In this document: positions 55,803-60,035 of the stretch, in pieces
Layout of the letters: every line of letters starts with the position of its first letter
Numbering within the stretch: position 1 is the stretch's first letter
NCBI RefSeq assembly: GCF_009761675.1
Contig: NZ_QUZH01000003.1
Span: 1 to 64,000 of the forward strand
Source: Bhargavaea sp. CC-171006
GTDB taxonomy: Bacteria; Bacillota; Bacilli; Bacillales_A; Planococcaceae
Length of the DNA stretch: 64,000 nt
Direction of reading: 5' to 3'
Notes under the pieces: model-generated
What the model saw: the letters and a program-made list of their open reading frames with translations, nothing else
Told to the model about the DNA's origin: nothing
The model's database searches: none
Program-made: the position numbers and the translations under genes

Positions 55803-56963
55803 ATGCTGAAAGACCAACAGTATCTTCGTATTCCGGGACCGACACCGGTACCGCCCAGCGTCCAGCGCGCCATGGCGCAGCCGATGGTCGGCCACCGCGC
55901 AAGCGAGACCGCCGAGCTGATCCGGCGCATCCGTCCGGGTCTCAAGAAAGTGTTCGGCACGGAACAGGACGTCATGATTTTTGCGGGAAGCGGCACATCC
56001 GGCCTCGAAGCGGCAGTTGTCAATACAGTCGGTGAAGGAGACGAAGTCATCGTTGCCGTCACCGGAGCATTCGGCAGGCGTTTTGTGAAGATCCTTGACG
56101 CTTACGGGGTGAACGTCCATGAGATCGAAACGGAATGGGGACATTCGGTCACGCCTGACGAGGTACGTGAAGCACTGAAGAATCATCCGGAAGCCAAAGC
56201 AGTCTTCGCCACTTTCTGTGAGACGTCGACCGGCGTACTGAACCCGGTGGCCGAACTGGCACAGGCAGTCCATGAAGAGTCGGACGCGCTGTTCATCGTC
56301 GACGGCGTATCCTGCATCGGGGGTGTCGATTCAAAAATGGATGAATGGGGCATCGACATTCTCGTCACCGGTTCACAAAAAGCGATGATGCTACCGGGCG
56401 GCCTCATGTTCGCAGCCTGCAGCGAACGCACATGGAACGTGATCGAAGCGAACCCGCGACGTGGATTTTATCTCGACTTCACGAAATACCGGGACAACCT
56501 GAAAAAGGATTCGACCCCGTTCACTCCTGCCACTTCCCTTCTTTACGGTCTGGAGCAGGCGATCCGGCTGATTGAGGAAGAAGGATTCGAGGAAGTCATC
56601 GCCCGGCACGAACTCATGAAAGACATGACACGCGCCGCATACAAGGCACTCGGCGTCCCGCTACTGGCAAACGACGAAGATGCCTCCCCGACCGTCACGG
56701 CGGTCCGGCCGGATGCCTTCGATGCCGCCAAGCTGCGCAAAGTGCTGAAGGAAGAATTTAACCTGATTATCGCCGGCGGCCAGGAACATCTGAAAGATGC
56801 CATCTTCCGGATCGGCCATATGGGCTACTGCTCGCCGGGTGATGTCCTGCAGACACTTGCAATGATTGAAATCGGCATTTTCAAGTCGGGCATGGAGATT
56901 GAACTTGGCAAAGGTGTCGCAGCCGCACAGCAGGTTTACCTAGGGAAAGGGGATCATCAATGA
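55803..56963 (+). CDS. Class V aminotransferase (alanine-glyoxylate/serine-pyruvate type)
   Basis: This 386-residue PLP enzyme begins with RIPGPTPVPPSVQRAM, typical of alanine-glyoxylate/serine-glyoxylate aminotransferases. The PLP lysine is in TGSQKAMMLPGG near residue 195. It is first in a serine T-box operon with serA, so it probably acts in phosphoserine or serine formation in place of, or along with, classical SerC. That role is an inference. AGGAGG lies 10 bp before ATG 55803; the frame runs open to 55713, inside the T-box. Confidence 0.88.
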   Translation: MLKDQQYLRIPGPTPVPPSVQRAMAQPMVGHRASETAELIRRIRPGLKKVFGTEQDVMIFAGSGTSGLEAAVVNTVGEGDEVIVAVTGAFGRRFVKILDAYGVNVHEIETEWGHSVTPDEVREALKNHPEAKAVFATFCETSTGVLNPVAELAQAVHEESDALFIVDGVSCIGGVDSKMDEWGIDILVTGSQKAMMLPGGLMFAACSERTWNVIEANPRRGFYLDFTKYRDNLKKDSTPFTPATSLLYGLEQAIRLIEEEGFEEVIARHELMKDMTRAAYKALGVPLLANDEDASPTVTAVRPDAFDAAKLRKVLKEEFNLIIAGGQEHLKDAIFRIGHMGYCSPGDVLQTLAMIEIGIFKSGMEIELGKGVAAAQQVYLGKGDHQ

Positions 56964-58579
56964 TGAATACAACGATCGAAAAGACCACAGTGAAAAATGC
57001 AGTCATCCTTATCAGCGACCCGCTCAGCGAAGAAGGGCTTCAGCCACTCCGTGAAGCGGAAGGCGTCGAACTCAAAATCCAGACCGGCATGACACCCGAG
57101 GAACTGCTTCATGCCGTAAAAGACGCGGATGCCCTCCTCGTCCGCAGTCAGACCCAGGTGACCCGCGAAGTCATCGAAGCTGCCGGCAACCTAAAGATCA
57201 TCGGACGCGCCGGAGTCGGGGTCGATAACATCGACCTTGAAGCGGCCACTGAGCGAGGCATCATCGTCGTCAATGCGCCGGACGGCAACACCAACTCGGC
57301 AGCAGAGCATACGATTGCCATGATGACCGCCCTTGCACGCAACATTCCCCAGGCCTTTCTTTCGCTGAAGGAAGGCAAATGGGACCGGAAAAAGTTCGTA
57401 GGCGTGGAACTTAAAGAAAAGACGCTCGGTATTGTCGGCCTCGGACGGATCGGCGCGGAAGTCGCGCGCCGCGCAAAGGGCCAGCGCATGTCGGTCATCG
57501 CCTATGACCCGTTCCTGACCGGGGAACGTGCCAAGGAAATGGGCATTGCCGTCGGCACGCTGGATGAAGTGGTGGCCGCAGCCGACTTCATCACCGTCCA
57601 CACGCCCCTCATGAAAGAAACCCGTCACCTCATCAATGCGGACCGATTCTCCAAGATGAAAGACGGAGTGCGCATCATCAACTGCGCCCGGGGCGGCATC
57701 ATCGACGAGGACGCGCTTTACGATGCGATCGAATCGGGGAAAGTCGCCGGCGCTGCGCTGGACGTTTTCGAGACAGAGCCGTTCGTCGGACACCGTCTGC
57801 TCGATCTGCCGCAGGTCATCGCCACGCCCCACCTCGGCGCAAGCACGATCGAGGCGCAGGAAAGCGTCGCGATCGACGTAGGCCGGGATGTCGTGCGATT
57901 CTTCGGCGGCAATCCTGTCCGCAACCCGGTCAACATGCCGTCCGTGTCGCGCGAAGTCCTGGCGAAGATCGGGCCGTTCTTTGACCTGGCCGAAGATCTA
58001 GGCGCCTTCATCTCCCACCTGGCCGACCAGCCGCTGACCGAAGTGAACATCCGCTATGCCGGCGACCTGGCCGAGTACGATGTGCGCCCGCTCACACGCA
58101 ATGCGCTGAAAGGGATCCTGAAGCGCAATCTCGGCACGCATGTAAATGATGTCAACGCCAAATTTCTCGCCGATTCGATCGGCATCGGTGTCTCCGAACA
58201 CAAAACGACCCAGTCGAAAGGCTTCCAGCACCTGATCACCGTTGAAGTGAAGGCCGGCGATGAGGCGCACAGCGTATCCGGCACCTTGCTGAACGGACTC
58301 GGGGAGCGCATCGTCAAGGTCGATGACTATGTCGTCGATGTCGTTCCGGCAGGCCACCTGCTCCTCATCAAGCACAAGGACCAGCCGGGCGCGATCGGCC
58401 GCGTCGGCACCCTCCTTGCGGAAGAAAACATCAACATCGCCACCATGCAGGTCGGCCGTTCCGCTGCAGGCGGAGACGCGATCATGATGATCACCGTCGA
58501 CAATGAGGTGAAGCCGGAAGAAGTCAGCCGCCTTCACAAAATTGAAGACATCCACGCAGTCCGGACGATTGATCTTTAA
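56960..58579 (+). CDS. serA: D-3-phosphoglycerate dehydrogenase
   Basis: This 539-residue enzyme oxidises 3-phosphoglycerate, the first step of serine synthesis. The NAD site is GLGRIGAEVARRAKG (about residue 157), with catalytic Arg in NCARGGIIDE, Glu in DVFETEPF and His in ATPHLGAST. It is the long form: an ASB domain (about residues 320-450) and a C-terminal ACT domain (about 465-539) that usually senses serine. Its ATG overlaps the previous stop by 4 bp, so the two are coupled. Confidence 0.95.
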   Translation: MMNTTIEKTTVKNAVILISDPLSEEGLQPLREAEGVELKIQTGMTPEELLHAVKDADALLVRSQTQVTREVIEAAGNLKIIGRAGVGVDNIDLEAATERGIIVVNAPDGNTNSAAEHTIAMMTALARNIPQAFLSLKEGKWDRKKFVGVELKEKTLGIVGLGRIGAEVARRAKGQRMSVIAYDPFLTGERAKEMGIAVGTLDEVVAAADFITVHTPLMKETRHLINADRFSKMKDGVRIINCARGGIIDEDALYDAIESGKVAGAALDVFETEPFVGHRLLDLPQVIATPHLGASTIEAQESVAIDVGRDVVRFFGGNPVRNPVNMPSVSREVLAKIGPFFDLAEDLGAFISHLADQPLTEVNIRYAGDLAEYDVRPLTRNALKGILKRNLGTHVNDVNAKFLADSIGIGVSEHKTTQSKGFQHLITVEVKAGDEAHSVSGTLLNGLGERIVKVDDYVVDVVPAGHLLLIKHKDQPGAIGRVGTLLAEENINIATMQVGRSAAGGDAIMMITVDNEVKPEEVSRLHKIEDIHAVRTIDL

Positions 58580-58632
58580 TAGAAGATAAAGAAGGCTCCC
58601 GCCAACGGAGATCGCTGTTTAAGTCCATAGTA

Positions 58633-58668
58633 AAGCCGCCACTCAGATTTTTGAGCGGCGGCTTTTTT
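58633..58668 (+). terminator. Terminator of the serine operon
   Basis: AAGCCGCC-CTCA / TGAG-GGCGGCTT stem with one bulge on each side, then TTTTTT. Confidence 0.85.
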
Positions 58669-58732
58669 CATGATTTGCGAACTGACTTAGCCTGGCAACG
58701 GCAAAAGATAGCGGAAAACGGCGGTCTGTCGG

Positions 58733-58897
58733 TTTCGTCATTCGGGCACCTGATTTCGTCATTCGGGCGCTTGGTTTCGTCATTCGACGCCCAGATTTCG
58801 TCATTCGTCCTTTTCCGGGAAGCGAATGACGAGATTGAACGGATGAATGACGAGATTGAACCCGTGAATGAAGAGATTGAACCCACGAATGACGAAA
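58733..58897. repeat. Mirror array of 21-bp repeats (four direct, four inverted)
   Basis: TTTCGTCATTCG starts at 58733, 58754, 58775 and 58796, exactly 21 bp apart. After a short centre, the complementary unit (C/T)GAATGA(C/A)GA starts at 58823, 58844, 58865 and 58886, again exactly 21 bp apart. The nine bases between units vary on the left arm and are more alike on the right (TTGAAC). The array lies between two terminators of convergent genes. A frame runs through it because 21 is a multiple of 3, but it has no ribosome site. Confidence 0.88.
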
Positions 58898-58910
58898 TGA
58901 CCTTCTGCCC

Positions 58911-58941
58911 AAAAAATTAACGGGACCGGCTTCGGTCCCGT
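58911..58941 (-). terminator. Terminator of the HAD gene
   Basis: ACGGGACCG / CGGTCCCGT stem followed on the minus strand by TAATTTTTT. Confidence 0.82.
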
Positions 58942-58948
58942 TTACAGC

Positions 58949-59740
58949 TTATCTGTTTGCATCGCTGATCACGTCTGCCAGTTTGCCGAGGTGGTCGATT
59001 TCGTAAGTCGGTTTCACTTCTGGATTCGGTTTGCTGCCTTCCCGGTTCAACCAGACGGAGCGGATGCCGGCACGGTTTGCACCGAGGATATCGGTCATCA
59101 GGTTGTCGCCGACCATCAATGCCTCATCTGCCTGTGTGCCCATTTTCTCGAGAACATGAAGGAAAATTGAGGCATCCGGTTTTCCTTTTCCGAAATCGCC
59201 CGAGATGAGAATGAAATCAAAATACGGCGAGATTTCAGGAGTGATGGTCAGTTTCTCGTTCTGGAGGCTCGGTGCACCGTTTGTGAGGAGTACGAGCCGG
59301 TAGTCTTTTTTAAGGGATTCCAGTACTTCAAACGATTCGCCAAAGACGAACGGGGCTTTGCGGCGTTCCGAGATGAACTTTGCGACCAGCTCGTTTGCCA
59401 GTTCGTAATCTTCCACGCCGACTTTCTTCAGCCCTTTTGTCCAGGCGTCCTTCTGGTAAGTCCGGATGATGTCGCGCATCCGCCGGAAATCATCCCCCTC
59501 ATCCTCGAAGGAACCCCATAGACCTTCGAACGGGTTAATGCCGATCATCTGGGTGAACTCGTATGTATCATACGAAGCGTATAGCTCGCGTGCTGACTCC
59601 CGCACTTTTTCCTCAAGCTGCTTCGGGTCGACTTTGGCCTTTTCAGCGGCAAATTCGCATGTGCGGTCGAATGCCGTCTGGATGCTTTTCTTGTCCCACA
59701 GGATCGTATCGTCCAAGTCGAAAATAATCGTCCGTATCAT
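58949..59740 (-). CDS. HAD family hydrolase (YjjG/YfnB-like)
   Basis: This 263-residue phosphatase-like protein has HAD motif I FDLDDTILWD (nucleophile Asp8, acid Asp10), motif II LLTNGA (about residue 154), motif III Lys in GKGKPD (about residue 190) and motif IV GDNLMTDI (about residue 217). It has an inserted helical cap after motif I, as in nucleotide 5'-phosphatases of the YjjG type. GAAAGGAGG lies 9 bp before the ATG. It converges on the serine operon; a phosphoserine phosphatase role is possible but unsupported. Confidence 0.88.
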   Translation of the reverse strand: MIRTIIFDLDDTILWDKKSIQTAFDRTCEFAAEKAKVDPKQLEEKVRESARELYASYDTYEFTQMIGINPFEGLWGSFEDEGDDFRRMRDIIRTYQKDAWTKGLKKVGVEDYELANELVAKFISERRKAPFVFGESFEVLESLKKDYRLVLLTNGAPSLQNEKLTITPEISPYFDFILISGDFGKGKPDASIFLHVLEKMGTQADEALMVGDNLMTDILGANRAGIRSVWLNREGSKPNPEVKPTYEIDHLGKLADVISDANR

Positions 59741-60035
59741 CGGGATCGGCCTCCTTTCAACTGGTATCCATTATAGCGGATATCCGGAGCAACAGGCGAA
59801 AATATTGGAATGTTCCGCACATCCGAAAGAAGCTTGCAAAAATCGCCCCATTTTATCTTTCACCCCTATCTCTTTAGTCTGCCTATTTTAAAAAAACTCC
59901 GATTTACGACTCTTTCCTTCCGATCCCTTAGCACCATTTTTATCCTTCTCATCGTTTCCTCATGATTCTCTCATCAGGTTTTATCTTTCAGCGGATAAAG
60001 TGGCGATGACATCAAACGAACGAGGAGGAATTGAC
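59741..60035. promoter_or_regulatory. Regulatory gap upstream of glycerate kinase
   Basis: TTTTATCTTTCA occurs twice as a direct repeat (59851-59862 and 59979-59990). The second copy also forms an inverted repeat TTTATC-N8-GATAAA (59980-59999). These are candidate operator sites of an unknown regulator of the glycerate operon. I find no strong promoter or gene here. Confidence 0.5.

What the first reader, a model, noticed from the sequence alone, without database searches (positions are those of the whole stretch)
58733..58897. Mirror array: four direct and four inverted 21-bp units in exact phase
Seen directly: TTTCGTCATTCG starts at 58733, 58754, 58775 and 58796, then the complementary unit at 58823, 58844, 58865 and 58886. 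All steps are exactly 21 bp, which is two helical turns and also seven codons. The arms could form a long imperfect cruciform or RNA hairpin. The array sits between two terminators of convergent genes, so it may be untranscribed and act at the DNA level, for example as a phased protein-binding site. I know of no named element with this design.
Basis: partly seen in the sequence, partly recalled or inferred. Interest (0 to 1): 0.68.

Follow-up and report, generated by a model that had tools for sequence, protein, structure and literature searches.

The report
Phased 21-bp intergenic repeat arrays
Between two genes lies a mirror-image array of eight short DNA signs spaced exactly two helix turns apart; it belongs to a family of such arrays, in several sequence dialects, found at the ends of genes in this one bacterial genus, and it probably acts as DNA bound by an unidentified protein.

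Summary
Four TTTCGTCATTCG units and four inverted, partly diverged units (0-3 mismatches) lie in phase between serA and a convergent HAD-hydrolase gene, each with its own terminator. The array is one of at least 30 in this genome, and such arrays occur in all 8 genus genomes searched, in one dialect or another (Bhargavaea, by contig-length matches). In 253 other genomes of the family only isolated, near-control-level matches appeared. The hexamer CAYTCR/YGARTG repeats every 21 bp, also across the mirror axis (313 of 320 same-direction distances and 52 of 62 junctions are multiples of 21). Two genomes use a different core; seven core types share YGARTG and the step, sometimes at the same orthologous locus. 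Between two species cores differ 5%, spacers 18%. Coding, palindromic REP units and intrinsic curvature were tested and not supported. This array can form a hairpin, but opposite-arm spacers are less complementary than chance, and the other dialects fetched run one way. Best reading: a clade-specific 3'-end DNA element bound in phase by a protein (inferred, unidentified). Main rival: a selfish minisatellite family.

The parts
58733..58807 (+). left arm: four TTTCGTCATTCG units (58733, 58754, 58775, 58796), 9-bp spacers
   Evidence: exact copies
58808..58822 (.). 15-bp junction (mirror axis)
   Evidence: 15 bp in 52 of 61 tallied junctions in four genomes
58823..58897 (-). right arm: four inverted units (58823, 58844, 58865, 58886) with 1, 2, 3 and 0 mismatches
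58739..58891 (.). hexamer lattice CAYTCR/YGARTG at 58739, 58760, 58781, 58802, 58823, 58844, 58865, 58886, all 21 bp apart
   Evidence: sequence; tested over 75 arrays
58632..58671 (+). terminator-like hairpin plus T run downstream of serA
   Evidence: (I5)
58912..58942 (-). terminator-like hairpin plus T run downstream of the HAD gene
56960..58579 (+). serA-type D-3-phosphoglycerate dehydrogenase, left neighbour
   Evidence: Pfam
58949..59740 (-). HAD-family hydrolase, right neighbour
   Evidence: Pfam

Best explanation
SHOWN: the array is one copy of a genus-specific family of intergenic arrays built on a 21-bp lattice. Each unit is a near-constant hexamer (YGARTG) plus 8-9 bp typical of the dialect plus 6-7 nearly unconstrained bp. 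Arrays are biased to gene 3' ends, are mostly found at the same loci in a related species, gain and lose units, and keep core and phase while spacers drift. INFERRED: the array works as double-stranded DNA. A sequence-specific protein (probably with dialect-specific relatives) binds each 14-15 bp core, and because the step is two helical turns all copies lie on one face of the helix and bind cooperatively. In the mirrored form two such runs point outward from a central junction. Placed at the ends of transcription units, such a bound stretch would act as a boundary or topological element (limiting read-through, absorbing supercoils between converging genes, or anchoring a nucleoid protein). 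Which of these, and the protein itself, are not known.
For: Family: 76 exact 11-mer cores and 150 phased pairs within 2 mismatches, control 0. Background: no run of three or more YGARTG at 21-bp steps in 40 sampled 9-kb stretches of G005. Phase: 313 of 320 same-direction and 52 of 62 across-junction hexamer distances are multiples of 21, although spacers diverge. Constraint: in 18 G000-G005 array pairs identity is 94.9% in the 12-bp core, 81.6% in spacers and junctions and 86.9% in non-coding flanks; positions 6-9 are 98-100%. Individual core variants are inherited (14 of 29 G000 deviations shared by the G005 ortholog), so homogenisation alone does not explain the conservation. 3'-end bias: 15 convergent, 14 tandem, 2 divergent of 31, against 43, 165 and 44 of 252 gene pairs in the same stretches. 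One-directional arrays lie most often between converging genes (23 of 48) and in tandem settings point both ways (9 against 11; rows include related loci), as expected for a DNA rather than an RNA signal. Dialects sharing hexamer and step. Non-coding.
Against: No binding protein was identified and no experiment exists. No intrinsic curvature beyond shuffles (mean z -0.26 over 21 arrays, recalled wedge values). Some distances break phase (18, 20, 22, 26, 43), and one array of about 21 units (L227) has repeated 19-bp steps. Ten of 62 junctions are off-lattice. At the window's locus 5 of 7 congeners have no lattice run (G001, G002, G003, G006, G007), so no single array is indispensable. Small gaps are common in array alignments (only 9 of 79 gaps are multiples of 21, against 1 of 122 in the flanks), though repeats align ambiguously. 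In one-directional arrays the upstream gene does tend to run the same way (33 of 49, p 0.02), which follows from the convergent bias but could also hint at a transcript. Detecting arrays through their core favours core identity somewhat. A place at gene ends is also what a harmless selfish repeat would show.
Confidence: 0.45

Rival explanations
1. Selfish or passively amplified minisatellite family (REP/MITE-like): arrays are copied to new gene ends by a transposase or template switching and grow by slippage; the core is what the copying enzyme recognises, with no host function.
For: The window array and the one at L171:8248 share one 6-bp spacer exactly, another with one difference, 11 of 15 junction letters and part of the upstream flank, so copies do reach new loci. 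Array plus terminator-like hairpin duplicated in L185. Four identical neighbouring spacers in L168 show slippage. Neighbouring spacers in one arm are slightly more alike than across arrays (G000 0.330 against 0.279). Clade restriction and dialects. Composite loci with two dialects. Absence at the window locus in 5 of 7 congeners.
Against: 23 of 30 G000 arrays have a flank match of at least 250 bp to an array-holding stretch of G005, G003 or G002, so most are older than these species splits, and they still keep core and phase far better than spacers, more than expected of decaying copies without function. Lattice kept across the inverted junction. No unit palindrome of the REP kind.
Confidence: 0.33
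2. RNA element: read-through transcripts form a long hairpin that ends or protects transcripts.
For: The window array folds as RNA at -78.4 kcal/mol, z -7.15. Half of the facing gene ends (22 of 44) have no recognisable terminator before the array.
Against: Opposed spacers are less complementary than between arrays (G000 0.190 against 0.291, 1 of 1000 permutations as low; G005 24 of 1000; pooled 0.226 against 0.301, 0 of 1000; G003 and G002 alone not significant; non-opposed pairs show the same kind of deficit). Of 33 loci fetched for the other dialects, 30 hold runs of three or more units and none has an opposite run of two or more within 200 bp. No Rfam match near its gathering score in window 58000-59800. 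One-directional arrays point both ways in tandem settings.
Confidence: 0.1
3. Rho-type or pyrimidine-rich backup terminator: the TC-rich strand of the core serves as a loading site.
For: The TTTCGTCATTCG strand is rich in TC pairs in types A and B (inspection), and arrays follow genes.
Against: Stricter sequence and phase than such sites are known to need (recalled); types C and D keep fewer TC pairs (inspection); both directions in tandem settings.
Confidence: 0.06
4. The array encodes a heptad-repeat peptide (21 bp = 7 codons).
For: Frames are open over the window array (89-aa ORFs); core types give hydrophobic residues at heptad-like spacing in one frame (inspection).
Against: Core position 7, a four-fold site in one forward frame, is A in 193 of 195 units; position 3, a four-fold site in a reverse frame, is C in 193 of 195. 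In that reverse frame YGA is TGA in 73 of 195 units. Out-of-frame 19-bp and 20-bp steps. The window ORFs start inside or run through terminator-like hairpins and have no Pfam match. One reverse frame (NDE) has only two-fold sites and is less well excluded.
Confidence: 0.02

Closest known systems
REP / BIME elements (repetitive extragenic palindromes; PMC3733652 abstract and passages; PMC2817692 passages)
   Same: Short extragenic repeats, mostly between tandem and convergent genes, in families that differ between species but share a short tag; clustered; opposite-orientation dimers whose partners often differ; bind proteins such as gyrase and IHF.
   Different: Unit is not palindromic; strict 21-bp direct-repeat lattice with usually one flip instead of regularly alternating orientations; the shared tag is YGARTG, not GTAG or a terminal CGTC; a RAYT transposase was not searched for.
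MIRU-type interspersed minisatellites / bacterial VNTR loci (recalled)
   Same: Direct tandem repeats dispersed over many intergenic loci with varying copy number.
   Different: 21-bp unit with only 14-15 bp conserved and spacers nearly free; mirrored arms; several dialects with a shared hexamer.
Plasmid iterons and parC-type centromere repeats (recalled)
   Same: Runs of about 20-bp direct repeats two helical turns apart, bound on one DNA face by a cooperative protein.
   Different: Dozens of chromosomal intergenic loci; the two neighbours at the window locus are metabolic genes; mostly 3-5 units per arm; spacers diverged.
Intergenic heptamer direct repeats such as TAACTGA in Beggiatoaceae (PMC4679880, abstract and passages)
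   Same: Lineage-restricted short direct repeats between genes, function unknown.
   Different: 7-bp units mainly just upstream of start codons; here 21-bp units biased to gene 3' ends.
DNA uptake sequence dialects (DUS; recalled)
   Same: Species dialects of a short motif with an invariant part, often inverted near terminators.
   Different: Dozens of arrays instead of many single copies; strict phase.

Membership tests
REP/BIME | each unit is a 20-40 bp imperfect palindrome (stem-loop) | tested here: not met
   199 G000 units: longest perfect stem mean 2.81 bp against 2.80 in shuffles, single-unit MFE -1.18 against -1.28
REP/BIME | terminal GTAG or CGTC tag | tested here: not met
   CGTC is internal in type A (and E) and absent from the consensus of types B, C, D, F and H
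REP/BIME | extragenic, downstream of genes, convergent/tandem | tested here: met
   29 of 31 arrays convergent or tandem
REP/BIME | regularly alternating orientations (BIME) | tested here: not met
   arms are runs of direct repeats with usually one flip
REP/BIME | cognate RAYT transposase in the genome | not tested
Interspersed minisatellite (VNTR/MIRU-like) | tandem direct repeats at many intergenic loci | tested here: met
   30 arrays in the G000 stretches fetched
Interspersed minisatellite (VNTR/MIRU-like) | copy number varies between relatives | tested here: met
   unit counts differ at many orthologous loci, e.g. 8 against 7 at the window locus, 9 against 4 at L168
Interspersed minisatellite (VNTR/MIRU-like) | whole unit repeated, not only a core | tested here: not met
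   variable positions carry 0.01-0.2 bit, core positions 0-10 carry 1.3-2.05 bits
Phased protein-binding array (iteron/parC-like) | fixed step of about two helical turns | tested here: met
   313 of 320 and 52 of 62 distances are multiples of 21
Phased protein-binding array (iteron/parC-like) | cognate binding protein | not testable with these tools
   no binding data; no candidate gene was sought or found
Known RNA family | Rfam match above gathering score | tested here: not met
   best match over the array 23.3 bits against 52.2 needed, window 58000-59800

The most novel reading that the evidence does not exclude
A new class of bacterial chromosomal boundary element: a phase-locked, orientation-tolerant lattice (hexamer every 21 bp) read by a family of cooperative DNA-binding proteins whose specificity has split into dialects within one genus, with sites and proteins changing together while the hexamer and the two-turn step stay fixed.
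Probability: 0.25. Interest if true: 0.85.

Novelty: new variant of a known kind. Interest (0 to 1): 0.62.

Why it matters
If the binding reading is right, a Bhargavaea genome carries dozens of natural, divergent copies of one phased site, with within-array spacers as a near-neutral control and several dialects as natural swaps. That makes it a direct test bed for how helical phase, site number and orientation set cooperative binding, and for how a protein and its many sites change together. If it is selfish, it is a non-palindromic counterpart of REP elements with an unusually strict geometry, which bears on how such families keep their form.

Tried and rejected
Coding heptad protein: rejected. 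RNA hairpin as the selected feature: not supported; opposite-arm spacers are anti-complementary. Strand GC skew as the cause of that deficit: top-strand skew of the two arms is uncorrelated in G000 (r 0.03), weakly and not significantly correlated when pooled (r 0.23, p 0.085, which then stopped with an error). Intrinsic curvature: no excess. REP unit palindrome: no. Plasmid and phage collections: no match to the array. Phase constraint from indel lengths in pairwise alignments: inconclusive because repeats align ambiguously; direct distance counts used instead. Terminus clustering: sampled GC skew of G005 puts a skew switch between about 79 and 150 kb of C6, near four A arrays, but C5 arrays do not fit a simple terminus bias and gene orientation could explain it; no claim made. 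The 'order' search returned the same 261 genomes as the family search, so it added nothing. Rows left out before counts: of the array pairs, L185-L236 was not used, and the matches L165-L241 and L178-L247 were never aligned; G000 arrays without an exact 11-mer (one known, C6:157269) were not extracted. Papers: ten searches listed no description of these arrays; the library holds open-licence papers only.

Full report
OBSERVATION. The array is as described. Four exact TTTCGTCATTCG units (58733, 58754, 58775, 58796) are followed after 15 bp by four inverted units (58823, 58844, 58865, 58886; 1, 2, 3 and 0 mismatches). Pairs in phase are far above chance (5 found, mean 0.01 in 100 shuffles). It lies between serA (+) and a HAD hydrolase (-), each with a terminator-like hairpin before the array. 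Looking at the hexamer CAYTCR/YGARTG instead of the 12-mer, the eight sites form one unbroken 21-bp lattice across the mirror axis.

THE GENOME. In the window's genome (3.27 Mb) the exact 11-mer occurs 76 times and phased pairs within two mismatches 150 times, with none for the reversed control. In the stretches I fetched and the window I extracted 30 arrays with 199 units: 22 have both arms, 8 one. Two further stretches (L172, L179) hold an isolated core without an array, and an array at C6:157269 without an exact 11-mer was not extracted, so the total is higher. The unit logo over 195 units is YRRTYTCGTCATTCR plus six nearly free positions. Of 54 one-direction chains, 40 have 3 or 4 units.

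PHASE. Taking core matches with at most two mismatches inside the 75 arrays from four genomes, 295 of 320 same-direction distances are 21 and 313 are multiples of 21; across the junction 52 of 62 are multiples of 21. By the first tally 52 of 61 junctions are exactly 15 bp. Because the hexamer keeps its place when the unit flips, helical position rather than unit direction seems to be what is kept (inference). As background, 40 sampled 9-kb stretches of G005 contain no run of three or more YGARTG at 21-bp steps.

WHERE. Of 31 arrays listed by hand, 15 lie between convergent, 14 between tandem and 2 between divergent genes, against 43, 165 and 44 of 252 neighbouring pairs in the same stretches (my own ORF caller; one tandem case overlaps a called ORF). 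At 22 of 44 gene ends facing an array a terminator-like hairpin precedes it (segments up to about 400 bp); 35 of 400 random 150-bp segments have one, a control not matched in length. So this array appears to lie outside both transcripts, but others may lie inside 3' regions.

OTHER SPECIES. All eight genomes of the genus carry such arrays, but not in one dialect. Six have type A, the window's core; the other two (G004, G006) have no phased pair within two mismatches (two isolated 11-mers each), yet carry type B, YGAGTGAGGAGAGTT plus six free bases, with the same 21-bp step. Further types: C YGARTGTTAAGMAA and D YGARTGTTACGNAAC, E YGAGTGACGCAAGTT (three units, L220), F YGAGTGGCGRGAWY, H about YGAATGTCYCGATWC (L310). 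An eighth, in L221, has the 21-bp step but fits the hexamer only loosely. Types B-F and H share YGARTG with A. In the other 253 genomes of the family the A pattern had 0 matches, the degenerate A/B pattern 1 isolated match with 4 control matches, and the C/D pattern 9 isolated matches with 5 control matches.

SAME PLACE, DIFFERENT DIALECT. At the window's locus G005 has the orthologous A array with one unit fewer, G004 a one-directional B array, and G001, G002, G003, G006 and G007 no lattice run. At locus L181, G000, G001, G005 and G007 have A and G004 has B beside another core; G002, G003 and G006 gave no match. At locus L183, G000, G002 and G003 have A, G005 has F and D, and G001 and G007 have traces of A beside D-like units; G004 and G006 gave no match. 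Several loci hold two dialects side by side (L220, L221, L278, L304). Either arrays persist while their core changes, or gene ends of this kind are shared targets.

CONSTRAINT. For 18 G000-G005 array pairs, identity is 94.9% in cores (1249 of 1316), 81.6% in spacers and junctions (763 of 935), 86.9% in non-coding flanks and 88.2% in coding flanks. For 30 pairs with three species (some G000 arrays used more than once) the figures are 94.1% core, 76.8% spacer, 78.2% junction, 86.3% flanks. Positions 6-9 are 98-100% conserved. At the ten non-degenerate core positions G000 deviates 29 times, and 14 of these deviations are shared by the G005 ortholog: units are inherited one by one rather than homogenised. 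Arrays were found through their core, which raises core identity somewhat; the spacer control is internal.

STRUCTURE TESTS. The window array as RNA folds at -78.4 kcal/mol (z -7.15) and as DNA at -39.7 (z -5.09). But in 55 mirrored arrays opposed spacers match less than when arms are exchanged between arrays (pooled 0.226 against 0.301, 0 of 1000 permutations as low; G000 1 of 1000, G005 24 of 1000, G003 and G002 not significant; non-opposed pairs show the same kind of deficit). Avoidance of long palindromes would explain this; a preference for unlike partners is reported for REP dimers (PMC3733652, passages read). Of 33 loci fetched for the other dialects, 30 hold runs of three or more units (not L224, L225, L306), and none has an opposite run of two or more within 200 bp. 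Units are not palindromes. Predicted curvature is not above shuffles.

MOBILITY. The window array and the one at L171:8248 share one spacer exactly, another with one difference, 11 of 15 junction letters and parts of the upstream flank, so copies do reach new places; L185 holds a duplicated array with a terminator-like hairpin. Nevertheless 23 of 30 G000 arrays have a flank match to an array-holding stretch of G005, G003 or G002.

MECHANISM. Shown: lattice, constraint, location, dialects. Inferred: a protein bound cooperatively on one DNA face at gene ends. I could not identify it, and a selfish minisatellite remains a serious rival.

OUTSIDE THE GENUS. Nine are Bhargavaea; the other 106 are plain or degenerate arrays of 7-bp units around ATTCGTC in many phyla (104 of 106 keep TTCG or one change at both tested intermediate 7-bp positions, 2 at one, against 0 of 9 Bhargavaea stretches). 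This is a different, simpler repeat that shares the CATTCG string.

NOVELTY. Ten paper searches listed no description. The element resembles REP/BIME in place and dialects but fails their defining palindrome, and resembles interspersed minisatellites but conserves only a core and a phase. I rate it a new variant of a known kind.

Noticed in passing
L046-L160: Arrays of 7-bp units around ATTCGTC (with variants such as ATTCGTA, CACTCGT) occur in Verrucomicrobia, Planctomycetes, Chloroflexi, Bacteroidetes, Nostoc, Shewanella and Burkholderia; they share CATTCG with the window element, and 21 = 3 x 7.
   Followed up: partly
L227:5340-5790 (G006): A type-B array of about 21 units with several 19-bp steps, apparently grown by block duplication.
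   Followed up: partly
L220, L221, L278, L304, L310: Composite loci where two dialects of the 21-bp array sit side by side or close together.
   Followed up: partly
L185:4894-5291: Two very similar mirrored arrays, with a terminator-like hairpin, duplicated in tandem.
   Followed up: no
L168:5038-5133: Four consecutive identical spacers (CTACGGTCA), a slippage expansion not seen in the shorter G005 ortholog.
   Followed up: partly
L189, L190 (G002, G003 window-locus intergenic): In place of the array, another long repeat-like insert containing GGACGCTTTCCGCGGGGAAGG and CCGCAGGAGTCGCC; a related-looking insert is in L194 (G006).
   Followed up: no
L332-L334 (G005 C6): GC skew and gene direction switch between about 79 and 150 kb, compatible with the replication terminus; four type-A arrays lie at about 57-144 kb.
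   Followed up: partly
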